A stretch of 64,000 nt of DNA from Isoetes taiwanensis (taxonomy: Eukaryota > Streptophyta > Lycopodiopsida > Isoetales > Isoetaceae): the NCBI GenBank assembly GCA_021234155.1, contig JAJEKV010000298.1, positions 248,001 through 312,000 of the forward strand, read 5' to 3'. A program made the translations under genes and the position numbers. The notes below the pieces were generated by a model, which was not told the origin of the DNA, did no database searches, and saw only the letters and a program-made list of their open reading frames with translations. This document shows, in pieces, positions 4,480 to 43,985 of the stretch (the stretch's first letter is position 1; each line of letters starts with the position of its first letter).

Positions 4480-5684
4480 ATTTCTCTCCACAGATGCAGG
4501 TAACCTAAATAGTATAGTTCTCACAAAAGGCATGGAATGACTAGAATTCAACAGGATTTTCTAGGCCGCTCTAACTATATGCTCATTAATATGAGCACTG
4601 TTAGAAGGTATATCCACGAACTAGACAACGTAAAACTTTCAAATCTTATCATCCTATACAAAGTATATGTCAAGCTAGCAGTCAGCCTTCGATTGCCATG
4701 ATACTTAACAAAATGGGCAGCCCTGTTCAGCAAGTTCTTGTTGTCCAATACAACAAAGTTCTTTACATCACCAGCACTAAGTCCTTCCCTTTCTCAATTA
4801 TAGACTCATTAATGTTGTGAAGATGACACACATAATGGACTATTGCCAAATTCCTTCATGCAGTAACCTACCATGCCCTTGAAGCAGTGTAGCCTATTGA
4901 TCTTCGAGACTTTACATAAGGGCACAACTCCAGGAAGTTTTGGCAGGCCAATTCATATCCTTCTTGATGGCCTCATTCATAGCCCTAGCAGACTTGTAAC
5001 AGGCTCTAAGAATAGCCTAGCAATGCAAATAATCTACAAAAATGTCTCATTAGTGTCACTGCCCCTTCTAAGCACCTTCTAACACAGAAACAAATCATAG
5101 CATCATAGAAGCTTCTGGGACATCCTGGCCTGAGAGCCCCAATGTCACACTCACGTCAATAGCTCCCCAATCCTGACCCAAACCAGGCCTTAGAGATGAA
5201 CCTCCAATTTGCTATCCCTCCATCTCTGAACTACTCAAAGATGGGGGGTAGCCCTAGCTATTCCCTTACCATTTCTTGTTGCCTTTTTCAAAGACATGCT
5301 GCCCTTAACTAAACCTACAACCTAATAGCCGGAAAGAACCTGTACCTTAGGCGCTGCCGACAAAGGAAGGAGCCAACATAACAAATGGATTTGAGATGGG
5401 TTCCTCGCTTCGCAGCAGGAAAACCAAACATGGAAATCTAACACCTGCAGGTTGCAAGAAAAGAAACTCATCTGCAGTTCGGCCATATGTAGCAATCTAC
5501 GTGCCATACCATCCTCTTCGGGCAATGATACCTCTTGTGATTCGCATAAGGCAGGTTCACCGTCAAGGATTATGGTATTAAAAAAAAGGACCAACAAATA
5601 CCTTATAAAATCGTATGTAGTAAAAATACGGTTTGTGATATCGGTCACGTTATGGTTGTGGATTTCTTTCCATCCATTAACGGT
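4480..5684. other. Intergenic, nothing recognised
   Basis: No coding frame with family resemblance. A 215-codon minus frame (5322-5969) crosses the end of the DIRS element at 5685 and matches nothing I know, so I do not call it a gene. Confidence 0.5.
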
Positions 5685-5720
5685 CATTCCTAGGATGGGT
5701 CCTGATCTACACACAAGTGG
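5685..5720 (-). repeat. DIRS terminal split repeat Y (3' end of element)
   Basis: The 36 bp starting CATTCCTAGGATGGGTC match the internal copy at 6469-6504 with one difference (T for C). The similarity stops sharply on both sides, which sets the left boundary of the element. Confidence 0.75.
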
Positions 5721-6311
5721 CCTGGTGTTCTCATTGAGCTTTGGAAAAATTTTGAGTACAAAGAGCCCCCGTAGGGTGGATGAAACAATGCTTAATACTA
5801 TATGCCCGAAATATAGACAATCCTCGAGAGCATGTAACTGGCCAAGTTCGATTTGAGTCAAGGAGTCCGCCAAAGCCGAAAAATCGCCCCCCCATCGAAA
5901 GTGCAAATTGCTTGTTGTGGAGCCGACGTGAACGTTGCCCCCCGAAGTTGAGGAGTCCGTGGATCGCATACCCTGTCACCGAAAAAGGCTAATTAGAGGG
6001 AGAGAATCTGGAAAGAGAGAACCCATTAGTCGTTAGAAGTTCCATAGTAGGCGAGGAACGATGCCACAAGAGAGAGAAAAAAACAATCTCGAAGCCACGG
6101 TGGCTACGCCGGTAGAGAAAGCTGGTCGACCAACAGGAAAACATTACTAGGGATCGGCTTTGGTTGGTACGCACGGAGGAACAACATCGCCACGCCGAGA
6201 GAAGAAGAAAAATATCTATACACATGCCCCCAAGGACCCCAACAAACCTAAGGAACCCAACCGAACAAGTGAAAACTCTCATCCAATGAAGGACAAAAAG
6301 CGGGGAAGGGC

Positions 6312-6504
6312 GGGGAAGCTAGGTAGAGGTGCAAGCGACCAAAGCAAAGCCCAAGAGAACCGATGGCCAATAATGTGGAAAACCGATCTATAAGTAGGAG
6401 GGCGAGGAGATGGGGGGCGTCCCCATCCAGGAATGACGGTTCTATTGCTATCGCGAATAGAACCGTGGCATTCCTAGGATGGGTCCCGATCTACACACAA
6501 GTGG
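6312..6504 (-). repeat. DIRS internal X+Y split repeat with palindromic junction
   Basis: 6312-6468 repeats the right end of the element (13334-13488), and 6469-6504 repeats its left end (5685-5720). The junction lies in a 62-bp imperfect inverted repeat (6422-6483). Its core is an 11-bp arm ACGGTTCTATT (6436-6446), a 9-base spacer and the arm AATAGAACCGT (6456-6466). This layout resembles a tyrosine-recombinase crossover site, although no such role is shown here. Confidence 0.8.
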
Positions 6505-6521
6505 TCGAAAAGAAGAGGAAC

Positions 6522-7700
6522 CTACCTCAAAGACCCGGATGGCGAATTGAGGAGGCTCCCTGAATATCGGGTAGAATGTAGCGTGAGTGGGAAGCGAGCC
6601 AACGCCCATGAGAGCGGACAATGTCGAAGGGATGACGTGGCAGAATTTTGTGGTGGCACCGCAGCCCTACGGCCGCATGGGTGCCAAAATTGCTGAGGCT
6701 CCAAACCGATAAGACGCAGAGGGCCTCAAACCACCAAGAACGGCAAAGCAAAGATAAGACAAAGGGCGTGGAGGGACAAGGATGAGCGAAAAGAGAGGAC
6801 CTCCCCGAGGTGGGTCGAGAAAGCTAAAACAAAGAAGCGGACAATAGACGTTTGCAATAACATGACCGGGCAAAAGGGAAAGAATGTGCGGGCTATGAGG
6901 ACCTCCTGGCCAGCGGCAGACTGGTCGCACTTAGACTTGCGGATATGCAACTGGACGTAGTCGGGGGAAAAAGACAGGTCGCGCCAATTCAAGTGCAGTG
7001 CCTCAGAGATGCGGAGAAAACCAGCAAAGCGGATAGTGACAAGGCATGCTTTCATAAGGCTGCGCCAATCGGCTCTTGCGGGGGCGAGAAGGGAGATGAC
7101 CTGGCGGACGTGAGATGCGGTAAGAGGTAAATGCCGCCGTGAAGAAGTGTGGGTACGAGGAGCAGCTTGGCGGACCAAAGCAGGAAGGGGGGCCGAACAA
7201 GGAGACGGGAGGTTGACCAAGCTATGAAAGAAGGTAATTGGCGGCGAGCGCAATCCCTATAGAAGTAGGACTAACGATGGGTGGAAATCAAGGAGGAAAA
7301 GAATGCAAAGAACATGCAAAGAGGAAGGAGCAAGGACGAAGTCGCCGGAGAATGACACCAACGACGAAATTGTAGCCGGCGGAAGAATAAGCGAAAGCAA
7401 GGTCGAGGGTACGAGTGGAGTGGAGGACGATGCCATAGCCGAGGCAAAGAAGGGCAAAGAGGGACCGGTCGAAAAAGGCAAGATATCTGGAACAAGGGAT
7501 AAACAAGTGTTAATATCGCCTAACAAAAATAGGATAACATCACCATGTACTACTCTAAGCCATACCAAACCCGACCAACAACCCGGAAGCCAAACACAAG
7601 TTTAACAAACAATCAAGAACAACCTTATATTACGATAAAGATAAAACTCAGAGAAGAATCACGCCGGACCGTAAGAACGAGCGGCGGAGAAAAGACAATT
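6522..7700 (-). pseudogene. Tyrosine recombinase of the DIRS element (frameshifted)
   Basis: The enzyme would insert the circular DNA form into the genome by strand exchange through a tyrosine nucleophile. The frame at 7253-6726 holds the first catalytic box, TIRFAGFLRISEALHLNW (Arg near 7005), followed by a Lys-containing beta region. A shifted frame (about 6670-6560) holds a GTHA stretch, then RSHGRWLASHSRYI with the second-box His/Arg and the candidate nucleophile Tyr near 6575. The residues between GTHA and HGRW look corrupted: the usual H-x-x-R of the second box cannot be read cleanly. The N-terminal core-binding part lies in shifted frames up to about 7700. Units 2 and 3 lack this gene, because the duplication breakpoint is at 8048. 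Confidence 0.75.
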
Positions 7701-8073
7701 TTAAGTATCGAAAAATCACAACGTAAGGCAAACAAAGCCGTGATGACGACGACGGAAACAAGGCGGAAGAAGGTGATGGGGAGTAAGGCATGGGAAAATT
7801 CATGAAAGAAAACTGCGTCTCGAACAAAAGATTGCCAAGTGGAGGAGTCAACAGCAAGCGCTGGCCACCAAGGGCGTAAGGCCATGAGAAAACAAGAAGT
7901 GTAAGGCGAAAGCCCGCGAAATGCGAAAGCATGATGCAAAACCCGGGAACCAAGGAAGGTGGAGGAAAGCAGAAGTTGTTGAACAAATGCCACTATAAGA
8001 AAGCGTCGCTGTGTGCGATCCGACGAGGGTAATAATCCTTGGTGTGCAAAAAACCGGGAGGGTGTTGGAAGGG

Positions 8074-8836
8074 CTAGCAAGCGATCCACATGATGAGGTC
8101 CCCAACGCCATCCAAGAGGCAAAAACTGAAGGAGACAGAGAGAAAATTGGCCAAAGGCCCGGATCTTGGAAAGATAATCAGCCCACTCATTCTCCAAGCG
8201 TGGAACCCAAACCGGATCCAATCAATATGGTGCCGATAGCAAAAAATTAGTACTTCCAAAAGAAAAATGAAGAATGTGAGATCGCGAACCGCCATTCCGC
8301 AATAAAAAGAACACATTCTCGATTGTCCCACGAAGCTATCACCCGTGAGTTAGTTAGCAACGACACACCGGGCCGGGATCTCGGAAAAGAGCAAAAAGTT
8401 CACGCCAAGTGGATGATTGGAGGCGGGCATCCGCCGAGAAGTCCCCGAAAAAGAAAGAAGTTCGTAACCCGACATGAAAGCCAACCACCCCATCCCTCAT
8501 CATCGGCATCAAAACCCAAGGTAGACCCGACCACGTATAGCGGCCACAAAGGGGCTCGCCGAACCGATAAATCGGGGTTTGCCAAAGCTGGACCTCCCCG
8601 CTTTGCAAGGGGAGATAGTAGAAGGGGTATCCCAAAGGTCGGCCGACGCAGATCAGCATGAAGGCCACAAGATAAGGCAAAGACAAAGATGACCCAAGAC
8701 CAAGCGTAGGGATTGGATAAAGCCAAGGAAACGCAATCAGCAGGAGTGACATTTTGGGAAGATATGAGAGAAGAGCACTGAGACGTAACCCGTTCCTTCT
8801 TAGCCCGAAATAATGAAAGAAAACCCTCATGAGCAT
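8074..8836 (-). pseudogene. RNase H domain of the DIRS element
   Basis: RNase H removes the RNA strand after reverse transcription. In the minus frame from 8836 the motif GFDADDEGWGGWL (about 8520-8480) gives the first acidic residue in the form usual for DIRS elements (D-A-S/D-D-x-GWGG). WRELFALF follows with the glutamate, and in another frame ENEWADYLSK (8200-8165) gives the last aspartate. Frames switch at least twice. No Dam-like methyltransferase domain, found in some DIRS1 elements, was seen. Confidence 0.75.
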
Positions 8837-8859
8837 CCACTATGAAACCTAAGAAGATT

Positions 8860-9400
8860 GTGCGATGGGGAGAGACGAAAACCGACACTTCTTCCAAGCT
8901 AGGAGAAAACCGCCCGCCAGAAGTCCGAAATGACGCGAATCTGCAGAAACTTCGGGACGGATGGGGCACAAGAATAGAATATCATCAACGAGGGTAGGCA
9001 ACGGATGCCCCCGACCTCGCCAAAACCGAACTATCCGTCCGACTAATTTGGTAAAGACAAAAGGGGCTGAAGCTAGACCAAAGGGGAGGACATTAAAGAC
9101 ATAGAACCACCATCAAGACCAAAACCCAAGAAAGTGCGATGAGGAGGCCGATCGCGGACATGGTGATAGCCGGATTTGAGGTCGACAAAGAAAGAGAAAG
9201 TCGCTGGGCAAACTCAAATGTGACAATAGTTCGAGGGACTCATACCGAAAAGGAGGGATAGTCAAGAAGGAGTTCGATAAGCGCAGATCCAAGATGACGC
9301 TAAATTTGTTTAGGCCTTTGGGGACGACCCCAAGGGGGAACGTAAGAAAGGACAGAGGAGGCGGGGAAGCGCACCCGTGGCGCAAGAGATCGGCTATAGC
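8860..9400 (-). pseudogene. Reverse transcriptase of the DIRS element (frameshifted)
   Basis: The motif FPLGVVPKGLNKFSVILDLR near 9345-9287 is the typical entry motif of DIRS/PAT reverse transcriptases. The catalytic aspartates lie near 9000-8970, where this copy reads LVDDILFL; unit 2 reads YVDDILFL. Between them, frames shift. The 295-codon open frame at 9113-10000 contains the first motif near its C-terminal end, and most of its N-terminal part is unrecognised. Compared with unit 2, part of the frame breakage here is likely consensus error. Confidence 0.75.
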
Positions 9401-10000
9401 AGAAAGTGAGCAAAGTCTAGGTGGGGCATTAACGGACGAAAGTGGTTTGAGGCGGCGAAAAGCAACAGCATCGGACACGTGGATGACCAAGGAAGGCGAT
9501 AACCAAATCAGATCCAACTCAACACTGCTGTGAGGAGCAAATGGATTGCCAAAAAGGAAGGGACGATGGAGGCGGTCCAGACTATAGTACTTGCCAGGCC
9601 AAATCATCCACCGGGAGGGTCGATGCCAAGATGAGGGATGACCGATGTGAACGGAGCACACATTCAAAAGAGGCCACAAACCGTAAGTAAACAACCTAGC
9701 AACAAATGGAAAAACATCAAACCAAGTAGGCAACGGGATCCATGTAGCACCATGCAAGCCTATAACCCCCTTGACGCCGAAGTTAAACCAACACAAGCTC
9801 AAACCTAAAACCTCGCAGTAAAAAAATATAACCCACATGCAACCTTTAACCCGGTGGAGAAAAATTCCACTAATACTAGAAAACTTTCGAGGCAAGCACA
9901 ACACATACTTAAACAACATTTCAAACCGCATGCCCCAATAATGGGGAAGGTACCGCCCCCAATTCATCCAACACCACCCCAACAATGATCCGACTATCAC

Positions 10001-10672
10001 TTAACACGCTAAAAACCATAAAATAATGGTAACCAACAAACTCAAACCTAAGAACAACAAACGTGAGCTAACAAAGAATGGGACGAGCCAACAACATTCA
10101 ATGAATACCATACATAATAGTGTTGCTTTAACCTCCAAACCAGAAAAATCAGGGGGGGAACATGAATCATGGACCGGGTCGAGGAAAAATGGAGTCTGGG
10201 CCGCACCAAAGGACCGGGGTGGAATCAAAAGTGGCAGAGGAGTGCTAGGAGATCCGGCATTAGCGCGAGCATGGCAAGTTTCAATACGATGGCCAAGACG
10301 ACCACAAAAAGTACAAAAAGGACGAGAACCGGATCTAGATGAAGAGAACTGGGACGGAGGCGCAGCAGAGAAGGAAGAGCCAGTGGAGGGAGCAGAGGGT
10401 TTTGAAGCAGAGGGGCGCCGATCACGGTGCATTTGCCGAGCTAGCTTCAATTTCCTGGAATCATCAGCAGATAAAGCGGGGCCCGCATGGTCATCAAAAT
10501 CCAAGGCGACATCATAGCCTTCGCGATCAGCAATAATCAAAAACTTCATCCTCTGCAGAGTGGCAGCCTTACCTTCCTCAATAATCAAGAATCGACGCAC
10601 CCGAGGGGACAAAGCCGCCAAATCGGGCATGAAGCTCCCTAATCTTGACTCCGCGGGCACAAAGGAACTCAT
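10001..10672 (-). pseudogene. Gag-like protein with CCHC zinc knuckle (DIRS element)
   Basis: The frame starts MSSFVPAESR at 10672. Residues 1-85 look globular, followed by a Ser/Pro/Ala-rich linker (about 86-118) and one CCHC knuckle with Cys120, Cys123, His128 and Cys133 (C-x2-C-x4-H-x4-C). Gag proteins with this knuckle bind the element RNA. Beyond residue 150 the frame becomes hydrophobic and low in information, and probably runs past the true end or across a frameshift. Units 2 and 3 carry the same start (about 25697 and 40750) with broken frames. Confidence 0.65.
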
Positions 10673-11439
10673 ATTGGTGGCGCTGACGATTCCCTCTTAA
10701 AGTTGGGGAACGTAATCGAGACGCCTCGCTCAACCTCCGGGCGAAGCACTTCAACCGCCATGCACGTAAGCGCCGGCAAGTGAAGACCGAAGGCTCAGAC
10801 TGCGCTTATCCGTGAGTCGGAGGGTTCCAGCAGCCTCGAGGCACCATATCCAAAGATGGAGAAGGAATGGATGGGCCCGCGGCCGGCTAAGGAATGGTTA
10901 AGCCCTATAGAAGGACTCACCGGGGCCGTGAGAAAAACCGGGGCGGAACCGGGGCAAAAGAAACGTAAGAGACAACCCGAGATGGACCTACCAACCCAAG
11001 TGAGAAGTCATGCTCGTGCATCCGGACAGAGGGATCGCGGGCATGGCAAAGTTCAACGTAGCGGCCAGAGGAGGTATGGAGGGCACCCAGTGCAATAGAA
11101 ATCGCAATGGCGCGCGGCACGCCGGACAAAGTGGGTAGAAGGGGCGGCATCGATAGTAACCCCGCTACCGTCGCTCGTAAAGAAGCCCGAGATGTGCCGG
11201 GAGAGCTCGACCGCCATGCTTTGAAAAAGTCTAGTAACAAACAAGTCGCGACGATTAGAACGAGACAAACAACAAACGATATAAAAGACATACAACGCAT
11301 GGGGAGAGAAAATAAAAAGGATGGACGATGCACCGGAACCATAACAACACAAACGTAGATATCGCCACAAACACACCGGGGAAAGACAACTAATGACCAC
11401 GAGACAAAACCTTAGCCTTAAAAAAATGCAAGGGAAAAT

Positions 11440-12085
11440 ATAGTCGAGGTGACCCTAGACGATATGAAAGATCCAAAAAGGTGATAACCGGGGAAACAAT
11501 GACCATAAAACCTAAATATGCGTGCAAAATACCAAATTTATAGAGCAAAAAATAAAAAATAACCATAGGGACGTTATAACCAATCATATGCCCAAGGAGA
11601 GAGCAAACTAAAGGTGAAAGCAATCATATGAAGAGATCCTAAAGGTGATGCTGGGGAAACAATGACCATAAAACCGGACATATGCAAGCAAACTATCAAA
11701 TTTATAGAGCAAAAATTAAAATAACCATGGGGTTGTTATAACCAATCATATGCCCAAGGAGAGAGCAAACTAAAGGTGAAAGCAATCATATGACGATCCT
11801 AAAAGTGATACTAGGGAAACAATGACCATAAAACTGGAAATATGCAAGCAAAATACCAAATTTATAGAGCAAAAAATAAAACAACCATGGGGTCGTTATA
11901 ACCAATCATATGCCCAAGGAGAGAGCAAACTAAAGGTGAAAGCAATCATATGAAAGATCCTAAAGGTGATACTAATGACCATAAACCGGAAATATGCAAG
12001 CAAAATACCAAATTTATAGAGCAAAAATAAAATAATCATGGGGTCGCTATAACCAATCATATGCCCAAGGAGAGAGCAAACTAGA
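11440..12085 (-). repeat. Four-copy 160-bp tandem repeat in the DIRS leader
   Basis: The block CAATCATATGCCCAAGGAG recurs at about 11581, 11743, 11903 and 12054, spaced 150-162 bp, with the rest of each unit also conserved. On the element strand it lies between the 5' terminal repeat and gag, in the untranslated leader. The same array is present in units 2 and 3. Confidence 0.8.
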
Positions 12086-13333
12086 GCCCATATAACAAAA
12101 AACGGACGACTACTACCGAACAAACATCATAAAGAACCCCTAGGAACAAGGGGTAATCACAAAATCATAGAGCTATCCAACGAACCTTGAAACGGAAAAA
12201 ACTCAAAAACAAACTTGAGAGAAGAGGAGAAGATAGGCAACGTCCAACGACAAAAAAGAGGAGCTAACGCCAGGAGAACCCGGTCTGGGCATCCCCGTAA
12301 AACAGGGGATCGAACCTGGTATCCCCCCATTAAAAGAAGGCGAGTATGGTGGGCGGCGGCGTGCCTAAACAATAAAAAACAGTAACCCTAAACAAACAAA
12401 AAAAAGGGGGTCGAAACCGAGGTGGTGATCGAGCTATAAAGCGCAAATAAAAAAAGAACAGAGGTAGAGAATCGGGCCGATAATAGAAAAGAGAACGAAC
12501 CGGCCCAGATTGAAGAAAATTTATCTTGAAGAATCGGCCCAAGGGAGAAAAGAACGTAACCGCCTATCTATGGTACACCCGAAGAAATTGATTAAATCTC
12601 TACTTAGCAGCGAATCAACCAGCCGATCGGACTGTGCCAGATCCGGCTCGATGCCCCAATCGCCAATCAATCCGGCAGACGGCAAACCGGGGCGATCTTG
12701 CTCGCTGTCGCGGGCTTATCAAACCAAAGGGATTTACTAAAAAATGCAGCCTGGTAATCGAACCAACAAACACGATAGGGATAATCGGCCGAACATAGGA
12801 AAAAGGAGGAGCTTAATCTAAGGATCTCAGGAAGCCATAACGCCCCGGCCGATTTATGCCGACGGACAAAACAGACGGTTGATGCCCCATCGCTAATCGA
12901 TCCGCGACGGCAAAACCGGGCAAAGTTTGCCCAAGCTGGCCGAGGGCCGATCAAACCAACAAAACAACCAGAGGAAACCGATCAAACCAACAAAAACAAA
13001 CGTAATAAACCGAAGAATAAACCGACAGAGAAAGAAACCACATAACGTAAAACGGTTCAATGCATAAAACCGGATAAAGCACCACGAGACTAACCAAGAC
13101 CGCCGCCGAAACTCACTTACTCGCAAAGATCCACGAGCGTGGCACATGGATTCAAGCAAAGGGAGAGATTAAACCGGTGAAAGAAAATAATGTGACTTAC
13201 CTTAGAGGATGCAAAGAACCGGACGCGGGAAGCGGTGTAGGGATGAAGAGCTTATCAGGCGCACCACCACAAGCTCGTCTTGGTGTGGATGAAGCTTGTC
13301 TTGGTGTGGATGGCTCTGGCTGGCGTGGGGTGC

Positions 13334-13488
13334 TGGGAAGCTAGGTAGAGGTGCAAGCGACCAAAGCAAAGCCCAAGAGAACGCCGATGGCCAATAATGT
13401 GGAAAACTGATCTATAAGTAGGAGGGCGAGGAGATGGGGCGCCCCATCCAGGAATGACGCCCTATTGCTATCGCGAATAGAACCGCGG
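13334..13488 (-). repeat. DIRS terminal split repeat X (5' end of element)
   Basis: About 155 bp starting GGGAAGCTAGGTAGAGGTGC, nearly identical to 6312-6468. It ends in the arm AATAGAACCG. Beyond about 13488 the sequence is the BTB upstream region, the same in all three units. Confidence 0.8.
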
Positions 13489-13501
13489 GCATAAGTTTGC
13501 A

Positions 13502-13508
13502 TATAAAA
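13502..13508 (+). promoter_or_regulatory. Possible TATA box upstream of the BTB gene
   Basis: TATAAAA lies about 350 bp before the BTB start codon and only some 14 bp from the end of the DIRS element. It is kept in all three units (near 28522 and 43629). This is a sequence match only; the transcription start is unknown. Confidence 0.3.
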
Positions 13509-13857
13509 ACAATCTCAACCGTGATTGTTTGACGAGATGTAGATCTCCAGGAACTATTCACTCATCTAGATGCATCCAAAATCGTCCAAAAGGCATATCT
13601 TGTGGACTATACTAATTCCTCACCCCACCCTAGGGCTTGCCCTTCAAGAATGAAATAGCAGTAACCAGTAGTATGATTAACTAATTCTCCCCTAAAAAAC
13701 CATTTTGGATTTATCCATTTAGATGTAGTCTCGATCTGCTGCAAACGACTTTATTCAAGTCGTCCGCTTCAAATGAACTGCATGCAAATTCAAATTCTCG
13801 ATTTGGGTACATGCAAATCAGATCAAAATCTAGAACCCAAAACTAGAAAAGGTTGGC

Positions 13858-16707: not shown

Positions 16708-16987
16708 AAAGGAGCTTCATCAACATCACCTACTCTTCAAAGAAGAAAGCTACAAGTTTTTTGCTTCCCATCTGCAGTCAACATATCACAATGCAGCTCT
16801 ACCTTCTCACCTCATGTTTTCTTGATGTTTCAAACTACTAGTGCTGGTCATAACTGTTTGAATTAGTCTTGTGACTAGAAACACTTGTTTTCTCCCCTTC
16901 ATTAGTCTGCTTTCTAATAGCAGAACAATGTATAGTTTTTATTAATTATTGGAAAAATATCTCTTACTCAAAAAAAAAAAAAGAAAA

Positions 16988-17673: not shown

Positions 17674-17787
17674 ACTCCCTAAGACGAGTACTTACTGCAC
17701 TCATGTAAGTATCAAAGATACAAGCATAGAGCATAGATCCATACTGGATTTGTTGCTTTCACTAGACTATTGATATACACATGATAT

Positions 17788-20520: not shown

Positions 20521-20574
20521 TGACAGTCCTGCCCTTAATCTGAGGGTTAGAGATTAGATAAAATATCCTGCCTG

Positions 20575-23084: not shown

Positions 23085-23443
23085 AAAAACCGGGCAGAGG
23101 GTGTTGGAAGGGCTAGCAAAGCGATCCACATGATGAGGTCCCCAACGCCATCCAAGAGGCAAAAAATCAAGGAGACAGAGAAAATTCGCCAAAGGCCCTG
23201 GATCTTGGAAAGATAATCAGCCCACTTATTCTCCAAGCGTGGAACCCAAAACCGGATCCAATCAATATGGTGCCGATAGCAAAAAATTAGTACTTCCAAC
23301 AAAGAAAAAAATGAAGAACGTGAGATCGCGAACCGCCATTCCGCAATAAAAGAACACATTTCGATTGTCCCCACGAAGCTATCACCCGTGAGTTAGTTAG
23401 CAACCCAGACACACCGCCGCAGATCCGGAAAAGAGCAAAAAGT

Positions 23444-24869
23444 TCACGCCAAGTGGATGATTGAGGCGGCATCCGCCGAGAAGTCCCTAAAAAGAAAGAA
23501 GTTCGTAACCCGGGACGTGGAAAGCCAACCACCCCATCCCTCATCACGGGCATCAAAACCCAAGGTAGACTCGACTACGTAGGCGGCCACAAAGGGGCTC
23601 ACGAACCGATAAATCGGTTTGCCAAAGCCGGACCTCCCGCTTTGCAAGGGGAGATAGTAGAAGGGGGTATCCCAAAGGTCGGCCAGACGCAGATCAGCGA
23701 TGAAGGCCACAAGATAAGGCAAAGACAAAGATGACCCAAGACCAAGCGTAGGGGATTGATAAAGCCAAGGAAACGGGCAATCAAAGCGAGGAGTGACATT
23801 TTGGGAAGATAACAGAAGAAGAGCACGCAGAGACGTAACCCGTTCCTTCTTAGCCCGAGAAATAACGAAAGAAACCCTCATGAGCATCCACTATGAAACC
23901 TAAGAAGATTGCAGCGATGGGAGAGACGAAAACTAACACTTCTTCCAAGCTAGGAGAAAACCGCCCGCCGAAGTCCGAAATGACGCTAACCGCAGAAACT
24001 CGGACGGATCGCACAAGAATAGAATATCATCAACGTAGGGTAGGCAACGGATGCCCTGACCTCGCCAAAACCGAACTATCTGTCTGACTAATTTGGTAAA
24101 GACAAAGGGGGCTGAAGCTAGACCAAAGGGGAGGACATTAAAGACATAGAACTGACCATCAAGACCAAAACCCAAGAAAGCGATGAGGAGGCCGATCGCG
24201 GACATGGTGATAGCCGGATTTGAGGTCGACAAAGAAAGAGAAAGTCGCTGGGCAAACTCAAATGTGACAATAGTTCGAGGGACTCATACCGAAGGGGAGG
24301 GGATAGTCAAGAAGGAGTTCGGAGAAGCGCATCCAAGATGAGACTAAATTTGTTTAGGCCTTTGGGGACGACCCCAAGGGGAAACGTAAGAAAGGACGAG
24401 AGGAGATCGGGAAGCGGCACCTGGGCGCAAGAGATCGGCTATAGCAGAGTGAGCAAAGTCTAGGTGGGCAGACACGGACGAGTGGTTTGAGGCGGCGAAA
24501 GCAACAGACGGACACGTGGATGACCAAGGAAGGCGATAACCAAATCAGATCCAACTCAACACATTTGTGAGGAGCAAATGGATTGCCAAAAAGGAAGGGA
24601 CGATGGAGGCGGTCCAGACTATAGCAGCCAGAGGCCAAACCATCCCGGGGGAGGGTCGATGCCAAGATGAGGGATGACCATGTGAACGGAGCACATTCAA
24701 AAGAGGCCACAAACCGTGGTAAACAACCTAGCAACAAATGGAAAACATCAAACCAAGTAGGCAATGGGATCCATGTAGCACCATGCAAGTTTATAACCCT
24801 CAAGACGCCGAAGTTAAACCAACACAAGCTCAAACCTAAAACCCCGCACAAAATATAACCCACATGCAA
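23444..24869 (-). pseudogene. DIRS RT and RNase H (unit 2)
   Basis: Best view of the DIRS reverse transcriptase. The frame 24232-23933 carries LGFGLDGQFYVFNVLPFGLA, then SAPFVFTKLVRQ and the catalytic CLPYVDDILFL, in normal order and spacing for DIRS/PAT elements. The RT entry motif lies at the end of the frame 24869-24354. RNase H follows at 23887-23444 with LGFDARDEGWGGWL, and ENKWADYLSKI lies further on in the frame 23374-23024. Frames still shift between these blocks. Confidence 0.8.
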
Positions 24870-25049
24870 CCTTTAACCCGTGGAGAAAAAAAAATTCCAC
24901 CTAATACTAGAAAAACTTTCGAGGCAAGCACAATACATACTTAAACAACATTTCAAACCCATGCCCCACACTGTGGAAGGTACCGCCCCAATTCATCCAA
25001 CACCACCCCAACAATGATCCGACTATCACCTAACACGCTGTAACCATAA

Positions 25050-25700
25050 AATAATGGTAACCAACAAACTCAAACCTAAGAACAACAAACGTGAGCTAAC
25101 AAAGAATGGGACGAGCCAACAACATTCAATGAATACCATACATAATAGTGTTGCTTTAACCTCCAAACCAGAAAAATCGGGGAACATGAATCATGGACCG
25201 GTCGAGGAAAAAATGGAGTCGGGCCGGCACCAAAGGACCCGGGTGGAATCAAAAGTGGCGAGGAGTGCTAGGAGATCCCCAGATTAGCGCCGAAAGCATG
25301 GCAAGTTTCAATAATGATGGCCAAGACGACACCAAAAAGTACAAAAAGGACGAGAACCGGATCTAGATGAAGAGAACCGGACGGAGGCGCAAGCAGAGAA
25401 GGAAGAGCCGTGGAGGGAGCAGAGGGTTTTGAAGCAGAGGGGCCGATCACGGTGCATTTGCCGAAGCTAGCTTCAACTTCACGGAATCATCGCCAGATAA
25501 AGCGGCCCGCATGGTCATCAAAATCCAAGGCGACATCATAGCCTTCAGCGATCAGCAATAATCAAAAACTTCATCCTCCGCAGAAAGTGGCAGCCTTTAC
25601 CTTCCTCAATAATCAAGAATCCCATCGCACCCGAGGGGACAAAGTCACAAACGGCATGAAGCTCCCTAATCTTGACTCCGGGCACAAAGGAACTCATATT
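25050..25700 (-). pseudogene. DIRS gag (unit 2, frameshifted)
   Basis: The Met-Ser-Ser-Phe-Val-Pro start is at about 25697, but the following frame is broken within 100 bp by indels. The Ser/Pro-rich linker and the region of the zinc knuckle (about 25310-25400) are recognisable at DNA level by comparison with unit 1. Confidence 0.6.
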
Positions 25701-26449
25701 GGTGGTGCGGCGATTCCCTCTTAAAGTTGGGGAACGATCGAGACGCCTCGCTTCAACCTCCCGGCGGCACTTCAATCCGCCATGCACGTAAGGCCGGCGG
25801 GCGGTGAAGATCAAGGCTCAGACTGCGCTATCCGTATCGGAGGGTCCGCGAAGCAACCGAGGCACCATATCCAAAGATGGAGAAGGAATGGATGGGCCCG
25901 CTGGCCGGCAAGGAATGGTTAAGCCCCTATAGAAGGACCTCATTGGCGTAGAGAAAAACTGGGGGCGGAACTGGGGCAAAAGAAACAGAAGAGACAACCC
26001 GAGATGGACCGGCCGAACCCAAGTGAGAAGTCATGCTCGGCATCCGGACAGAGGGATCGCGAGGCATGGCGGTGTTCACCGTGTAGCCAGAGGAGTGTAT
26101 GGAGGGCACCTCGTGCAATAGAAATCGCACGGCGCGGCACGCCGGACAAAGCGGGTAGAAGGGGCGGTACCGATAGCAACCCGCCACCGGCTTGCGTCAG
26201 AAGAAGCCCGAGATGTGCCGGGAGAGCTCGACCGCCATGTCAGAAAAAAGTCTAGTAACAGCAAGTCGCACGCATTAGAACGAGACAAACAACAAACGAT
26301 AAAAGACATACAACGCATGGGGAGAGAAAAATAAAAAGGATGGACTATGCACGGAACCACAACAACACAAACGTAGATATCGCCACAACACACCGGGGAA
26401 AGACAACTAATGACCACGCAGACAAAAACCTTAGCAAATTTCTAGAAAA

Positions 26450-27090
26450 ATGCAAGGGAAAATATAGTGAGGTGACCCTAGACGATATGAAAGATCCAAA
26501 AGGTGATAATCTGGGAAACAATGACCATAAAACCGAAAATATGCAGCAAAATACCAAATTTATAGAGCAAAAATAAAATAACCATAGGGACGTTATAACC
26601 AATCATATGCCCAAGGAGAGAGCAAACTAAAGGTGAAAGCAATCATATGAAGAGATCCTAAAGGTGATGCTGGGGAAACAATGACCATAAAACCGGACAT
26701 ATGCAAGCAAACTATCAAATTTATAGAGCAAAAATTAAAATAACCATGGGGTTGTTATAACCAATCATATGCCCAAGGAGAGAGCAAACTAAAGGTGAAA
26801 GCAATCATATGACGATCCTAAAAAGTGATACTAGGAAACAATGACCATAAACTGGAAATATGCAAGCAAAATACCAAATTTATAGAGCAAAAATAAAAAC
26901 AACCATGGGGTCGTTATAACCAATCATATGCCCAAGGAGAGAAAACTAAAGGTGAAAGCAATCATATGAAAGATCCTAAAGGTGATACTAATGACCATAA
27001 AACCGGAAATATGCAAGCACAAAATACCAAATTTATAGAGCAAAAATAAAATAATCATGGGGTCGCTATAACCAATCATATGCCCAAGAG
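26450..27090 (-). repeat. Tandem repeat in the DIRS leader (unit 2)
   Basis: Counterpart of the four-copy 160-bp array in unit 1: CAATCATATGCCCAAG at about 26602, 26761, 26920 and 27074. Confidence 0.75.
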
Positions 27091-28885
27091 AGAGCAAACT
27101 AGAGCCCATATAACAAAAAAAAACGGACGACTACTACCGGAACAAACATCATAAAGAACCCCAGGAACAAGGGGTAATCACAAAATCATAGAGCTATCCA
27201 ACGAACCTTGAAACGGAAAAAAAAACTCAAAACAAACTTGAGAGAAGAGGAGAAGATAGTGAACTTGAGAGAAGAGGGAGAAGATAGGCAACGTCCAACG
27301 ACAAAGAGGAGCTAACGCCAGAGAACCCGGTCCGGCATCCCCAAAAAGCGGGGATCGAACCCGGTATCCCCCCATTAAAAGAAGGCTGAGGCTGGCGGGC
27401 GATGGCGGCGGCCGAAACAATAAAAACGTAAACCCTAAAAACAAACAAAAAGGGGGTAAACCGAGGTGGTGATCGAGCTATAAAGCTTGGCCGAAAGAAC
27501 AGAGGTAGAGAATCCACGATAATAGAAAAAGAGAACAGACCTACTCATTGAAGAAAATTTATCTTGAAGAATCTACTGAAGGAGAAAAAAACGCAACCGC
27601 CTATCTATGGTACACCTGAAGAAATTGGATTAAATCTCACGACTAGCACTTAGAACCAGCCTGATCGGACTGTGCCGATCCGGGCTCGATGCCCCACCGC
27701 CAATCAATCTGGCAGACGGCAAACCGGGCGGAGATCTTGCTCAAAGGGGTGTCAGGCTTATCAAACCAAAGGGATTTACCAAAAACAAAGCCCAAATAAT
27801 CGAACCAACAAACAATGATAGGGATAATCGCCGCAATGATAGGAAAAAGGAGGGCTTAACGGAAGGATCTCGGTGAAGCCATAACGCCCCGTCGATGTTG
27901 TCCGACAATCGAAAAAATCGGTTGATGCCCCACCGCTAATCGATCCGGCAGACAAGCAAAACCGGGGCAAGTTTGCCTAAGCTGCCGAGGGGTGATCAAA
28001 CCAACAAAAACAACCGAGGAAACCGATCAAACCAACAAAACAACTGCATTAAACCAAGAATAAACCGGACAGAGAAAGAAACCACATAATGTAAAACGTG
28101 TTCAATGCATAAAACCAGATAAAGCACCACGAGACTAACCAAGACCGGCTGCCGAACTCACTTACTCGCAAAGATCCACAGAGCGCGGCACATGGATTCA
28201 AGCAAAGGGGAGATTAAACCCAGAAAGAAAAAATAAGACTTACCTTAGAGGATGCAAAGAACCGGACGTGGAAAGGTGTAGGGATGAAGAGCGATCGGGG
28301 CGACCACCACAAGCTCGCCTTGGTGTGGATGAAGCTTGTCTTGGTGTGGATGGCTCGGCCGGCGTGGGCGTGGAAGCTTTAGGTAGAGGTGCAAGCTTGA
28401 CCAAAGCAAAGCCAAGAGAACGCCGTGTGGCCAATAATGTGAAAACTGATCTATAAGTAGGGCGACAGGAGATGGGCCCCCATCCAGAATGACAGTTCTA
28501 TTGCTATCGCAATAGAATGTGGCATAAGCTGCATATAAAAACAATCTCAACCGTGATTGTTTGACGAGATGTAGATCTCCAGGAACTATTCACTCATCTA
28601 GATGCATCCAAAATCGTCCAAAAGGCATATCTTGTGGACTATACTAATTCCTCACCCCACCTAGGGCTTGCCCTTCAAGAATGAAATAGCAGTAACCAGT
28701 AGTATGATTAACTAATTCTCCCTAAAAACCATTTTGGATTTATCCATTTAGATGTAGCTCGATCTGCTGCAAACGACTTTATTCAAGTCGTCCGCTTCAA
28801 ATGAACTGCATGCAAATTCAAATTCTCGATTTGGGTACATGCAAATCAGATCAAAATCTAGAACCCAAAACTAGAAAAGGTTGGC

Positions 28886-32725: not shown

Positions 32726-32835
32726 CCTAAGACAGTACTTATCGTGACTCATGTAAGTATCAAAGATACAAGCATATATATAGATCCATCTTTGGATTTG
32801 TTGCTTTCACTAGACTATTGATATACACATGATAT

Positions 32836-38126: not shown

Positions 38127-38425
38127 GAAAAGCTGGCGGGAGGGTGTTGGAAAGGGCTAGCAAAAGCGATCCACATGATGAGGTCCCTAGCGCTCATCCA
38201 AGAGGCAAAAACCTGAAGGAGGCAGAGAAAATTCGTCAAAGGCGGGATCTTGGAAAGATAATCAGCCCACTCATTCTCAAAGCGTGGAACCGGCCTGGAT
38301 CCAGCCCGAATATGGTGCTGAGATAGCAAAAAATTAGTACTTCAAACTGGCAAAAATGAAAACGGGGAGATCGCGAAACGCCGTGCGCAATAAAAAGAAC
38401 ACATTACGATTGTCCCCACGAGCTA

Positions 38426-39640
38426 TCACCGTGAGTTAGTTAGCAGCGAGACCTGCCATTTGCGGGATGGAAAAAGAGCAAAAAGTTCACGCCAAGTGGA
38501 TGATTGGAGGCGGGCATGCGGAGAAGTCCCGAGAAAAAGAAAGAAGTTGAACCTTGGGACGTGAAAGCCAACCACCCCATCCCTCATCAGTGGCATCAAA
38601 ACCCAGGTAGGCGACCACGGAAAGGCGGCCCCAAAGGGGCTCTGGTCGGTGATAAATCGGGGTTTTGCCAAAGTGGACCTCCTGTTTTGCAAGGGGAGAT
38701 AGTAGAAGGGGGTATCCCAAAGGTTGGCCAGGCTTGGAGTCGGCATGAAGGCCACAAGATAAAGGCAGCACAAAAAGATGACCCAAGACCAAGCGTAGGG
38801 ATTGGATAAAGCCAAGGAAGCGGGCAATCAGGCGGTGGTGACATTTTTGGGAAGATAAGAGAAGAGCGAGAGGCGGAGAACCCGTTCCTTCTTAGCAGAA
38901 ATAATGAAAAGAAACCCTCATGAGCATCCACTATGGAAACCTAAGAAGATTGTGCGATGGGAGAGCGAAACCGACACTTCTTCCAAGCTAGGAGAAAACC
39001 GGACTGCTTGCAAGTCCGGAAAATGGCGCGAATCTGGTAAAACTTCGGGCGTGACCGGCACAAGAATAGAATATCATCAGCGTAGGGTAGAGCAGCGGAT
39101 GCCCGACCTGTAAACCGAACTATACAATGTCGACTAATTTGGTAAAGACAAAGGGGCTGAAGCTAGACCAAAGGGAGGACATTAAAGACATAGAAGCTGA
39201 CCATCAAGACCAAAACCAAAAGAAAGTCTGATGAGGGAGGCGGATCGTGACATGGTGATAGCGGTTTGGGGTCGGCGGCAAAGAGAAAGTCGTTGGGCAA
39301 ACTCAAATGTGACAATAGTTCGAGGGACTCATACAGAAAGGAGGGATAGTCAAGAAGGAGTTAGGATAGCGCGAGATCCAAGATGAGACGAAATTTGTTT
39401 TAGGCCTTTGGGACTGACCCCAAGGGGAGCAGAAGAAAGGGCGAGAGGAGATCGGGAAGCGGCACACGGTCGCATAAAGATCGGCTATAGCTTGAGTGAG
39501 CAAAGTCTAGGTGGGCAGACACGGACCCAGTGGTTTGGGTGGCGAAAAAATGAGGCCGAGGACGTGGATGACCAAGGAAGGCGATAACCAAAGCTGTATC
39601 CAACTCAACACCTGTTGTGAGGAGCAAATGGATTGCCAAA
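38426..39640 (-). pseudogene. DIRS RT and RNase H (unit 3)
   Basis: Strongly frameshifted. Recognisable pieces are the SPWGQSQRPKTNFVSSW stretch (a shifted reading of the RT entry motif, 39503-39303) and LGFDATDEGWGGWL of RNase H (38792-38487). The RT catalytic region near 39120-39060 is too altered to read. Confidence 0.65.
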
Positions 39641-40239
39641 AAGGAAGGGGCGCATGGGGCGGTCCAGGACTATATAGCGAAGCCAAACCATCCATTTGGG
39701 GAGGGTCGATGCCAAGATGAGGGATGGCCAGATGTGAGCGGGCACATTACGAAAAGAGGCCACAAACTGTAAGTAAACAACCTAGCAACAAATGGAAAAC
39801 ATCAAACCAAGTAGGGCAATGGGATCCATGTAGCACCATGCAAGCCTATAACCCACCAGTTGAGTTAAACCAACACAAGCTCAAACCTAAAACCTGGCGT
39901 ACAAAATATAACCCATGCAACCTTTAACCCCGTGGAGAAAAAATTCCCGAATACTAGAAAAAAAACTTTCGAGGCAAGCACAACACATACTTAAACAACA
40001 TTTCAACCTGCATGCCCCACACGGGGGAAGGTACCCCCAATTCATCAACACCACCCCAACAATGATCGACTATCACCCTAACCGTTGTAACCATAAAATA
40101 ATGGTAACCAACAAACTCAAACCTAAGAACAACAAACGTGAGCTAACAAAGAATGGGACGAGCCAACAACATTCAATGAATACCATACATAATAGTGTTG
40201 CTTTAACCTCCAAACAGAGAAAAATCGAGGGGAACATGA

Positions 40240-40755
40240 ATCATGGATAGGGTCGAGAAAAAAATGGAGTCGGAGGCCGGCACCAAAGGACAGGGTGGAA
40301 TCAAAAAGTGGCGAGGAGGAGTGCTAGGAGATCCAGAGCATTAAGCGCGAGCATGGCAAAGTTTCAATCTGATGGCCAAGGCGACCACAAAAGTACAAAA
40401 AGGACGAGAAACCGGGATCTAGATGAAGAGAGCTGGGGCGAGGCCTTGTGCAAAGAAGGAAGAGCCGTGGAGGGAGCAGAGGTTTTTGAAGCCGAGGGAA
40501 TCACGGTGCATTGCCGAAACTAGCTTCAATTTCACGGAATCATCAGCCGAGATAAAAGCGGGGCCGCATGGTCATCAAAATCCAAAAGCGACATCATAGC
40601 CTTAGCGTCGGCAATAATCAAAAACTTCATCCCTGCGGAGTGGCGGCCTTACCTTCCTCAATAATCGAAAATCCCTATGGGGCAGAGGGAACAAAGGCAT
40701 CAAGCGGGCATGAAGCTCCGGAATCTTGACTCAGGTAACAAAGGGAACTCATATT
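40240..40755 (-). pseudogene. DIRS gag (unit 3)
   Basis: Matches gag of unit 1 at DNA level but with indels throughout; no frame longer than about 60 codons survives on the coding strand. Confidence 0.55.
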
Positions 40756-41519
40756 GGTGGCTGACGATTCCCTCTTAAAGTTGGGAGCAGGCCAAGGGCG
40801 CTTGGTTCAGACCTCTGGCGAAGCACTTCAAATCTGCTCATGCAAAGCGTCCGGAGTAAAGTGAAAGGCCCGAGAAGGCTCGTAGTACCACCATGTTTGG
40901 AGGATTACCCGGTATTTGAGGGCACCATATCAAAAAGATGGAGAAGGAATGGATGGGCCCGCAGATTGAGCAGGGAATGGTTAAGCCCTATAGAAGGACC
41001 TGCTGAAGCCAGAGAAAAACTGGGGAAGCGGGCCCGGGACAAAAAGAAGCGAAAGAGACAACCAGGATGGACCCGGTAGAACCTAAGTGGGAAGTCAGCA
41101 CCGTGCATCGGCAGGGGAGGGATCGCGGGCATGGCTGAGGAGTTCAAGCGAAGCGAACGAGAGGAGGTGTATGGAGGCACCTCGGGTGCAATAGAAATCG
41201 CAGCCGGCACGCGTGCACTGACAAGACGGTAGTGAGGGGGGTAGAAGAGTCTTGATATACCCAACTTTCTCAGTCGGGCTAAGCCAGAAAAGCTTGAGAT
41301 GTCTTTGGGAGGCCCTCGATCCGCCATCTTTTAAAAAAGTCTAATGTTAAGTCGCGACGCATTAGAACGAGACAAACAACAAAGCGAAAAAAGACATACA
41401 ACGATGGGGGAGAAAAATAAAAAGGATGGGCGATGATGCGGAACCACAACAACACAAACGTGATATCGTCACAACACACACGGGGAAAGACAACTAATGA
41501 CCACGAGACAAAACCTTAG

Positions 41520-42200
41520 CGACCTAGAAAAATGCAAGGGAAAATATAGTCGAGGTGACCCTAGGCGATATGAAAGATCCAAAAGGTGATCTTTGGGGAA
41601 ACAATGACCATAAAACCAGGAAATATCACGGGCAAAATACCAAATTTATAGAGCAAAAATAAAATAACCATAGGGACGTTATAACCAATCATATGCCCAA
41701 GGAGAGAGCAAACTAAAGGTGAAAGCAATCATATGAAGAGATCTAAAAAAAGGTGATCTTTGGGGAAACAATGACCATAAAACCGGACATATGCAAGCAA
41801 ACTATCAAATTTATAGAGCAAAAATTAAAATAACCATGGGGTTGTTATAACCAATCATATGCCCAAGGAGAGAGCAAACTAAAGGTGAAAGCAATCATAT
41901 GACGATCCTAAAAAGTGATACTAGGAAACAATGACCATAAAACTGGAAATATGCAAGCAAAATACCAAATTTATAGAGCAAAAAATAAAACAACCATGGG
42001 GTCGTTATAACCAATCATATGCCCAAGGAGAGAGCAAACTAAAGGTGAAAGCAATCATATGAAAGATCCTAAAGGTGATACTAATGACCATAAACATAAT
42101 AGGAAATATGCAAGCAAAATATCAAATTTATATAGCAAAAAATAAAATAACCATGGGGTTGTTATAACCAATCATATGCCCAAGGAGAGAGCAAACTAGA
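41520..42200 (-). repeat. Tandem repeat in the DIRS leader (unit 3)
   Basis: Counterpart of the 160-bp array, with CAATCATATGCCCAAGG at about 41686, 41850, 42012 and 42169. The last repeat differs slightly from that of units 1 and 2 (TAACCATGGGGTTGTT instead of TAATCATGGGGTCGCT). Confidence 0.75.
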
Positions 42201-43985
42201 GCCCATATAACAAAAAACGGACGACTACTACCGAACAAACATCATAAAGAACCCCTAGGAACAAGGGGTAATCACAAAATCATAGAGCTATCCAACGAAC
42301 CTTGAAACGGAAAAAACTCAAAACAAACTTCAAAACAAACTTGAGAGAAGAGGAGAAGATAGGCAACGTCCAACGACAAAAAGAGGAGCTAACGCCCGAG
42401 AGAACCGGTGCAGGGCATCCCCGTAAAAGCAGGGGATCGAACACAGTATCCCCATTAAAAAGAAGGCGGAGGCGGTGGCGATGGCGGTACGGGAAACAAT
42501 AAAAACAGAACCGAAACAAACAAAAAGGGGGTCTAAAAACACGAGGTGGTGATCGAGCCATAAAGCGGGGGCGAAAGAACAGAGGTAGAGAATCGGCCGG
42601 ATAATAGAAAAGAGAAACGAAATCGGCTGTATTGAAGAAAATTTATCTTGAAAAGAATGGCTGAAAGGAGAAAACGAAGTTTCCCGCCTATCTATGGTAC
42701 ACACAGGAAGAAATTGGATTAAATCTCTACGGCCTAGCAGGAACGGAACCATCCGGGACCGAGGGGCGGATCCGGTCGATGCCCCACTGCCAATCAACTG
42801 CGACGGCAAGCCGAGGGTAGATCTTGCTCCTGCGGTGCATAGGCGATCAAACCAAAGGGATTTTACCAAAAAATGCGAGGCCGAAATCTTGAACCAACAA
42901 ACCACGGATAGGGATAATCGGCGGAACATAGGAAAAAAGGAGGAGCGAGCGGAAGGATTCGTGAAGCCATAACGGCCCGGGCGATTTATCTTGTCGGACA
43001 AAAGCAGAGCCGGTTGATGCCCTACGCCAATCGATCTGGCGGGGGCAAACCCGGGGGCAATTTGCCCAAAGCGAGGGGCCGATCAAACCAACAAAACAAC
43101 CGGAGGAAACCGATCAAACCAACAAAACAAACTGAATAAGCCAGGAAGAATAAACCCAAGAAAGAGAAACCACATATGAAACGTGTTCAATGCATAAAAC
43201 CGGATAAAGCACCCACGAGACTAACCAAGACCGGCTGCCGAAAACTCACTTACTCGCGGCATCCGCGAGGCGTGGCACATGGATTCAAGCAAAGGGAGAG
43301 ATTAAAACCGTAAAAAGAAAATAACAGACTTACCTTAGAGGATCAAAGAAGGACGTGGAAGCGGTAGGGATGAAGAGCGTCGAGGCGACCACCACAAGCT
43401 CGTCTTGGTGTGGATGAAGCTTGTCTTGGTGTGGATGGCTCGGCCGGGTCAAGTCGGGGTGGGAAGCTAGGTAGAGGTGCAAGCGACCAAAGCAAAGCCC
43501 AAGAGAACGCCGATGGCCAATAATGTGGAAAACTGATCTATAAGTAGGAGGGCGAGGAGATGGGGCGTCCCCATCCAAGGAATGACGGTTCTATTGCTAT
43601 CGCAATAGAACCGTGGCATAAGCTGCATATAAAAAACAATCTCAACCGTGATTGTTTGACGAGATGTAGATCTCCAGGAACTATTCACTCATCTAGATGC
43701 ATCCAAAATCGTCCAAAAGGCATATCTTGTGGACTATACTAATTCCTCACCCCACCCTAGGGCTTGCCCTTCAAGAATGAAATAGCAGTAACCAGTAGTA
43801 TGATTAACTAATTCTCCCCTAAAAAACCATTTTGGATTTATCCATTTAGATGTAGCTCTCGATCTGCTGCAAACGACTTTATTCAAGTCGTCCGCTTCAA
43901 ATGAACTGCATGCAAATTCAAATTCTCGATTTGGGTACATGCAAATCAGATCAAAATCTAGAACCCAAAACTAGAAAAGGTTGGC

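What the first reader, a model, noticed from the sequence alone, without database searches (positions are those of the whole stretch)
5685..13488. Complete tyrosine-recombinase retrotransposon with split direct repeats in a plant locus
Seen: minus-strand gag knuckle, DIRS-style RT and RNase H and a tyrosine recombinase (FLRISEAL, HGRW, SRYI), enclosed by X ... Y+X ... Y repeats. Known: DIRS/PAT/Ngaro elements replicate through a circle and use a tyrosine recombinase instead of an integrase. They are well described in amoebae, animals, fungi and green algae; I know of little on land plants. Inference: this is a PAT-type lineage that was recently active, since both split-repeat pairs are still nearly identical.
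Basis: partly seen in the sequence, partly recalled or inferred. Interest (0 to 1): 0.75.

Follow-up and report, generated by a model that had tools for sequence, protein, structure and literature searches.

The report
Tyrosine-recombinase retrotransposon in a quillwort
This stretch holds a jumping gene that copies itself through RNA and inserts with a Cre-like recombinase, a type that reviews describe as missing from land plants, and the same plant genome holds many sister copies that look recently active.

Summary
Confirmed. Window 5685-13488 (minus strand) is a PAT-type DIRS-order retrotransposon: A1 - gag - RT/RNase H/methyltransferase - tyrosine recombinase (YR) - B1A2 - B2. The window copy has broken frames and lies partly in a 15-kb tandem triplication whose copies differ by assembly-type noise, so its own repeats cannot date it. 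The host genome (1.658 Gb; by size Isoetes taiwanensis, a lycophyte) settles the case. It gave 40 scored places for the YR/B1A2 region and 106 RT matches. Of 30 YR loci chosen by Pfam score, 25 keep three catalytic motif blocks in one frame. One copy has identical A pairs (157/157) and B pairs (36/36). Copies end at A and B, at an AAT shared with the target, like the published 3-bp DIRS circular junction. Two points go beyond the textbook. The B|A joint is a strong two-stem hairpin of the same geometry but different sequence in three families. In 5 of 12 copies the right terminus carries that copy's own target sequence. Short forms fit recombination between two B|A sites. DIRS elements were reported absent from land plants (PMC9033089, PMC3266345), so this extends a known kind to a new host group.

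The parts
13332..13488 (-).
   Evidence: direct repeat with 6310-6468; left end of other genomic copies lies here, preceded by unique flank + AAT
11473..12086 (-). leader tandem repeats, four copies of about 160 bp
   Evidence: also in L072 and in smaller number in L073
10004..10696 (-). gag-like frame with CCHC knuckle
   Evidence: zf-CCHC_4 E 0.015, below cut-off
8852..9400 (-). reverse transcriptase, in several frames
   Evidence: RVT_1 4.2e-6 on 8852-9112; tblastn with DIRS-type pol of L001 and L003 about 2e-16 and of L002 1.5e-9
8156..8839 (-). RNase H region, weakly supported in this copy
   Evidence: alignment only: NEWADYLSK against NTSADALSR of L001, part of a match with E 0.036; no Pfam RNase H match in these pieces
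7850..8150 (-). methyltransferase-like region
   Evidence: WGPHHVDR and WWPAL align to L001 pol, E 0.036; the same region of copy L072 gives Pfam Dam E 0.0077, below cut-off
6530..7570 (-). tyrosine recombinase, frame broken
   Evidence: Phage_integrase 6.5e-4; motifs; the same region of L072 is a 330-aa open frame with PF00589 9.3e-8
6469..6504 (-).
   Evidence: 35 of 36 identical to 5685-5720
6310..6468 (-). A2, inner copy of A
6422..6483 (-). hairpin at the B1|A2 joint, candidate recombination site
   Evidence: opposite-strand self matches; DNA fold of 6425-6490 z -6.4
5685..5720 (-).
   Evidence: several genomic copies lose homology at 5683-5691
23085..28525 (-). truncated second copy in the tandem triplication
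38137..43619 (-). truncated third copy in the tandem triplication

Best explanation
This is one copy of a PAT-type (split-direct-repeat) member of the DIRS order that has multiplied in the nuclear genome of a lycophyte (by assembly size Isoetes taiwanensis; inferred). Shown here: the repeat order, the protein domains, the positions of the ends, the spread over the genome, open frames in other copies, and an AAT at the joints. Inferred from the published model: an RNA running from A1 towards B2 is reverse transcribed, the internal B1A2 block templates closure of a cDNA circle with a B|A joint, and the YR recombines that joint with a chromosomal AAT, giving target-AAT|A1...B2-AAT|target without a regular target duplication. 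Also inferred: a circle with two B|A sites can recombine with itself, which would yield the A...B and A-x-B short forms seen in the genome.
For: Split repeats in order. Domains in better-assembled copies: PF00589 9.3e-8, RVT_1 1.4e-16, Dam 0.0077, zf-CCHC_4 0.032; YR model closest to Cre-loxP structures, Foldseek E 3.4e-11. RT 38.7% identical to DIRS-type L001 (E 3e-43) against 26.6-29.1% to the host's Gypsy RTs; tree split 100/100. 40 places for YR+B1A2 (40 of 1703 candidates scored); 106 RT matches, 20 of 106 with a stop-free frame of at least 550 aa; 25 of 30 score-chosen YR loci with RxSE, HxxRRG and GRW..Y in one frame. L073: A 157/157, B 36/36 identical; L074: A 162/163, B 39/39. Left ends AAT in 15 of 18, 4 of 4 and, in family II, 7 of 9. 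B2 found in 22 of 24 loci, 14 of them ending exactly CCTAGGAAT. Short forms in 3 of 13 family II loci and one 892-bp A-x-B unit.
Against: No PAT, DIRS1, Ngaro or VIPER reference sequences were at hand, so the placement inside the DIRS order rests on anatomy. The AU test does not reject the element grouping with Gypsy (p 0.215). Several Pfam scores are below cut-off. The window copy itself has broken frames. Seven of 22 right ends are non-canonical and one more differs by a base. The host name is inferred from assembly size.
Confidence: 0.93

Rival explanations
1. An LTR (Gypsy-like) retrotransposon misread as DIRS, with a chance recombinase-like frame.
For: By sequence the RT is nearest to Ty3 among solved structures, and the AU test does not exclude grouping with Gypsy.
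Against: No terminal LTR pair but split repeats; YR with catalytic motifs in many copies; no integrase (rve) match among the pieces scanned; RT clearly closer to DIRS-type L001 than to the host's Gypsy.
Confidence: 0.02
2. A Ngaro-type or DIRS1-type element instead of a PAT-type one.
For: Ngaro also has split direct repeats (PMC6681497, passages).
Against: Ngaro and VIPER lack the methyltransferase (PMC3266345, passage), which is seen here weakly but consistently; DIRS1-like elements have inverted terminal repeats, and no inverted repeat pair was reported in 5000-14500.
Confidence: 0.05
3. A dead relic family: the repeats look alike only because of gene conversion, and nothing has moved for a long time.
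For: The window copy is broken, and most copies in the DNA search are 74-93% identical to it.
Against: Copies with identical A and B pairs, long open RT frames in 20 of 106 matches and intact YR motif sets in 25 of 30 chosen loci; part of the window's damage is assembly noise.
Confidence: 0.1
4. The target-derived right ends are ordinary target-site duplications made by staggered breaks and repair, not traces of YR strand exchange.
For: Tract length varies from about 5 to 15 bp, and the left ends are target-type where readable.
Against: The tract replaces the last bases of B at near-equal length instead of being added to them, and 7 of 12 copies have none.
Confidence: 0.4

Closest known systems
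PAT-like elements of the DIRS order (chlorophyte, nematode and other families named in PMC3266345; definition in PMC6681497)
   Same: split direct repeats A1-ORFs-B1A2-B2; gag, RT/RNase H/MT and YR
   Different: host is a lycophyte; two-stem hairpin at the B|A joint and target-derived right ends (I saw no report of either in the passages read); no direct sequence comparison was possible
DIRS1-like elements
   Same: 3-bp circular junction, most often AAT, recombining with an identical genomic triplet (PMC3266345, passages)
   Different: DIRS1-like elements have inverted terminal repeats and internal complementary regions; this one has direct repeats
Ngaro and VIPER elements
   Same: split direct repeats, YR
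   Different: reported to lack the methyltransferase region (PMC3266345)
Cre and other tyrosine recombinases
   Same: fold of the modelled YR; R, H-x-x-R, W and Y motifs
   Different: about 19% identity; used for cDNA integration
Integron attC sites (recalled, from no call)
   Same: two stacked stems with an asymmetric bulge and an off-centre crossover, used by a tyrosine recombinase
   Different: no homology tested; single-strand use is not shown here

Membership tests
PAT-like (DIRS order) | split direct repeats in the order A1 ... B1A2 ... B2 | tested here: met
   window; L072-L075
PAT-like (DIRS order) | tyrosine recombinase with catalytic R, HxxR, W and Y | tested here: met
   25 of 30 score-chosen loci; PF00589 above cut-off in L072-L075; in the window copy only in pieces
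PAT-like (DIRS order) | RT/RNase H of the DIRS type | tested here: inconclusive
   tree split 100/100 from Gypsy, but AU p 0.215 for the alternative and no PAT references; RNase H only by alignment
PAT-like (DIRS order) | methyltransferase region after RNase H | tested here: met
   Dam E 0.0077 in L072, below the curated cut-off; the same region of DIRS-type L001 gives Dam 0.0022
DIRS1-like | inverted terminal repeats | tested here: not met
   0 inverted repeat pairs in 5000-14500 at 25 nt or more
Ngaro-like | no methyltransferase region | tested here: not met
   MT-like region present, weak scores
LTR retrotransposon | terminal LTRs and DDE integrase | tested here: not met
   repeat layout; no rve match in the 10 pieces or the 8 proteins
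Integron attC-type folded site | recombination of a folded single strand | not testable with these tools
   only folding potential was computed

The most novel reading that the evidence does not exclude
The circle joint is used as a folded single strand: the B|A junction forms a two-stem hairpin like an integron attC site, and a Cre-fold YR exchanges one strand of it with an AAT in the chromosome; later repair leaves the target-derived tracts at the right end. This would be attC-like single-strand recombination in a eukaryotic retrotransposon lineage that survives in land plants.
Probability: 0.15. Interest if true: 0.82.

Novelty: new member of a known kind. Interest (0 to 1): 0.62.

Why it matters
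A 2022 review of land-plant transposable elements leaves DIRS out because it had been found only in green algae (PMC9033089, passage), and a 274-genome survey found none in streptophytes (PMC3266345, passages). A vascular plant with several families, open frames and identical repeat pairs removes that absence and offers a plant in which YR retrotransposition could be watched. The well-marked ends (AAT joint, hairpin junction, target-derived tracts, short forms) make the integration step of the DIRS order directly testable. It also bears on the proposal that the plant ALOG domain came from a DIRS-type recombinase (PMC3537659, passages).

Tried and rejected
LTR origin: rejected on repeat layout, YR and RT distance, though the AU test alone would not exclude it. 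Ngaro and DIRS1 types: rejected on MT and lack of inverted termini. Chance repeats: rejected because the same ends recur in other copies. Reading all of the window's frameshifts as decay: set aside, because the three tandem copies differ unevenly, as expected of nanopore and gap-filled sequence (PMC8566536). An ALOG domain in the YR: no ALOG match in the Pfam scans at their thresholds. A simple heteroduplex model for the target tracts was weighed: symmetric mismatch repair should also give circle-type left ends, and none was clear among the 18 (L080, left of L047, has a B-like piece next to A1 that I could not explain).
Full report
Observation. On the minus strand, window 13488 to 5685 reads: A1 (13488-13332), a leader with four tandem repeats of about 160 bp, a gag-like frame with a CCHC knuckle, RT, RNase H, a methyltransferase-like region, a tyrosine recombinase, B1 joined to A2 (6504-6310), and B2 (5720-5685). 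FLRISEAL, HGRW and SRYI are there. A DIRS-type RT pattern is found twice in the window and in none of 100 shuffles.

Surroundings. A unit of about 15.05 kb (8049-23084) recurs at 23085-38136 and from 38137 to about 52.7 kb. It runs from inside this element, through a BTB/BACK gene, into a LINE. Copies 2 and 3 therefore hold truncated elements without the YR end, B1A2 and B2. The three units differ unevenly. In the bin from 14000, copies 1 and 3 have no private substitutions (copy 3 has 5 gap columns) and copy 2 has 5 substitutions and 22 gap columns; in the four bins from 8000 to 11000, inside the element, copy 3 alone has 65-93 private substitutions per kb. That fits unpolished nanopore sequence better than decay. 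The assembly paper used ONT R9.4.1 reads, miniasm, racon and pilon, and two rounds of LR_Gapcloser with a pilon step between (PMC8566536, passages). Whether the triplication is real cannot be told from here.

Host. The Isoetes taiwanensis assembly is 1658.30 Mb in 204 scaffolds plus 909 contigs. The name is an inference from size. Window genes agree with a land plant: BTB/BACK_BPM_SPOP, LINE zf-RVT, Copia-type gag (below cut-off) and a polyketide-cyclase exon. Of the YR loci listed, most lie on scaffolds of 9-53 Mb and a few on small contigs, which argues against contamination as the general source, although the authors note that non-plant contigs had to be removed. The main text of that paper has no occurrence of 'DIRS'.

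Genome-wide family. A 1001-bp query of the YR end plus B1A2 gave 64 matches in 40 scored places out of 1703 candidates; apart from the window itself they are 74-93% identical in the 39 other long matches. The RT of one copy (401 aa) gave 106 matches at 52-96% identity besides itself, 103 of 9041 candidates being scored; 20 of 106, counted by me from the table, have a stop-free frame of at least 550 aa. PF00589 gave 58 matches, 148 of 246 candidates scored. Of the 30 of those loci that were fetched, the best by score, 25 have RxSE, HxxRRG and GRW..Y in one frame. At least three sequence families exist: I (window), II (the L013-L041 group with a different junction; YRs 44-51% identical to L072) and III (L040; 42%). 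Copies with open frames exist; none is singled out here.

Domains. From better-assembled copies: PF00589 9.3e-8, Phage_int_SAM_4 1e-3, RVT_1 1.4e-16 and Dam 0.0077 in L072, zf-CCHC_4 0.032 in L075; SAM_4, Dam and zf-CCHC_4 are below their cut-offs. By sequence the RT is nearest to Ty3 among solved structures (E 9.6e-16), as expected where no DIRS structure is listed. The AlphaFold model of the YR (pLDDT 76.5, pTM 0.55, 21 rows) matches Cre-loxP structures best (E 3.4e-11, TM about 0.6, rmsd 6.6). It is a modest model whose C-terminal 40-50 residues, which hold W and Y, are poor.

Relatives and tree. A pattern scan of bacterial and archaeal genomes, using this element's own RT motif, returned three contaminant contigs with DIRS-type pol and YR: L001 and L003 (high GC, algal-looking, origin unknown) and L002 from a clam-symbiont assembly. 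They align to the window pieces over RT (E 2e-16 for L001 and L003, 1.5e-9 for L002) and weakly over RNase H/MT (E 0.036). The element's RT is 38.7% identical to L001 (E 3e-43) and 26.6-29.1% to the host's own Gypsy RTs (E 1e-15 to 1e-17). The unrooted tree separates the five DIRS-type rows from eight Gypsy rows at 100/100. Forcing the element with the Gypsy rows costs only 1.72 log units (AU p 0.215), so the tree alone does not settle the question.

Ends. In L073, A1/A2 are 157/157 and B1/B2 36/36 identical; in L074, 162/163 and 39/39; L072 and L075 have A at 98.3% and 97.5% and B at 92.5% and 97.7%. In several copies (for example L043, L044, L045, L049, L064) homology to the window stops at 5683-5691; in others it stops earlier. 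Of 24 loci given, B2 was found in 22: 14 end exactly CCTAGGAAT, one differs by a base (L058), and seven are non-canonical. Of 18 left ends fetched, 15 have AAT directly before the element's G, two have ATT and one lacks it; three of the AAT cases and the one lacking it share a flank and are not independent. L072-L075 have AAT in 4 of 4. In family II, 20 A starts were fetched of 40 scored (1173 candidates): 9 are left ends, 7 with AAT and 2 with TAT, and 11 are B1|A2. The ATT and TAT cases suggest that the triplet at the left comes from the target. This matches the 3-bp circular junction, often AAT, of DIRS1-like elements, whose integration is described as making no target duplication (PMC3266345, passages).

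Target-derived right ends. For 12 copies with both ends known, the last bases of B2 match the copy's own left flank in 5: L048 and L052 (11 bases), L063 (5), L065 (11 of 12, one mismatch) and L072 (15, five of which B shares anyway). The observed sum of positional matches was reached in 0 of 20,000 re-pairings, the summed run length in 1 of 20,000. L049 (left end without AATG) and L046 (no B2 found) were dropped before that count. By run length L065 does not rank its own partner first. A family II unit, L094/L114, shows the same: its right end GAGTCCTTT-ACTATAAT repeats its left flank ACTATAAT. Seven of the 12 have canonical ends, so this is a minority pattern.

Junction hairpin. The B1|A2 joint was found by pattern in 45 locus entries (some are the same genomic place fetched twice), 27 of them unique; each folds as two stacked stems with a small loop, with more or less perfect pairing. 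As DNA strands, z-scores are -14.1 (L024, family I), -7.65 (L017, II), -5.5 (L040, III) and -6.4 (window). Sequences differ between families while the geometry is kept; because the loci were picked by junction patterns, loci with decayed hairpins are under-represented. The outer stem needs B and A together, so it exists only at the joint. The crossover AAT lies beside the bulge, not at the centre of symmetry. That is my basis for the attC-like reading, which is recalled from the integron field and unproven; a palindromic duplex site is not excluded.

Short forms. In 3 of 13 family II loci B1 abuts unrelated DNA: L015 and L023 exactly after AAT, L020 after AAC. L094/L114 is an A-x-B unit of 892 bp, against 893 bp for A2-x-B2 in L019; L110/L121 is an A1...B1 form of about 0.95 kb with no room for the ORFs (2 of 9 left ends tested had a B in the stretch fetched). 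Both kinds are what recombination between the two B|A sites of one circle would give; truncated reverse transcription or deletion is an alternative.

Literature. PMC9033089 (passages): DIRS not counted among land-plant elements, found only in green algae until then. PMC3266345 (passages): undetected in streptophytes. Against full novelty: PMC6890710 (passage) lists 361 DIRS-labelled fragments (45 kb) in a fern, PMC13415678 (passage) assigns 8.26% of a conifer genome to DIRS, and PMC11630846 (passages) names DIRS as a class of plant retrotransposons; none of the passages seen shows element anatomy. PMC5890265 (passages) describes a charophyte Gypsy element with a DIRS-like repeat layout. Searches for DIRS with Isoetes (2 papers, listing only), DIRS with Selaginella (14, listing only), DIRS with fern genome (5, listing, some then opened), YR retrotransposon with palindrome (9, listing only) and integron attC with retrotransposon (1, listing only) showed no description of this element. 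Subscription journals, preprints and supplements were not searchable, so earlier mention is possible.

Verdict. A genuine and apparently recently active PAT-type retrotransposon family in a lycophyte; a known kind in a new host group, with unusually informative ends.

Noticed in passing
window 8049-52740: Tandem triplication of a 15-kb unit (element piece, BTB/BACK gene, LINE piece); either a real duplication or an assembly or gap-filling artefact.
   Followed up: partly
window 21480-22012 and 36518-37034: A foldback (self-complementary, about 73%) stretch of about 530 bp inside the LINE in tandem copies 1 and 2, absent from copy 3.
   Followed up: no
L039 1108-1809 (minus strand): A different tyrosine-recombinase frame (PF00589 5e-8) without the GRW motif, perhaps Crypton-like (from memory); other PF00589 matches that cover only profile positions from about 87 to 167 may be of the same kind.
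   Followed up: partly
L001, L002, L003: DIRS-type retrotransposon contigs inside bacterial genome assemblies: two metagenome bins and one clam symbiont, evidently eukaryotic contamination.
   Followed up: partly
L085, L090, L091, L093: Four element copies share one left flank, as if inserted in another repeat or duplicated together.
   Followed up: no
L080 (left end of L047): Left flank holds a B-like piece (GGGACCCAT) right beside A1: nested insertion or a multimer joint.
   Followed up: no
window 11473-12086: About 160-bp tandem repeats in the element's leader, varying in number between copies.
   Followed up: no
window 59720-60694 and 62080-63095; window 45-790: A 70%-identical direct repeat pair, and overlapping self-matches like a minisatellite; neither identified.
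   Followed up: no
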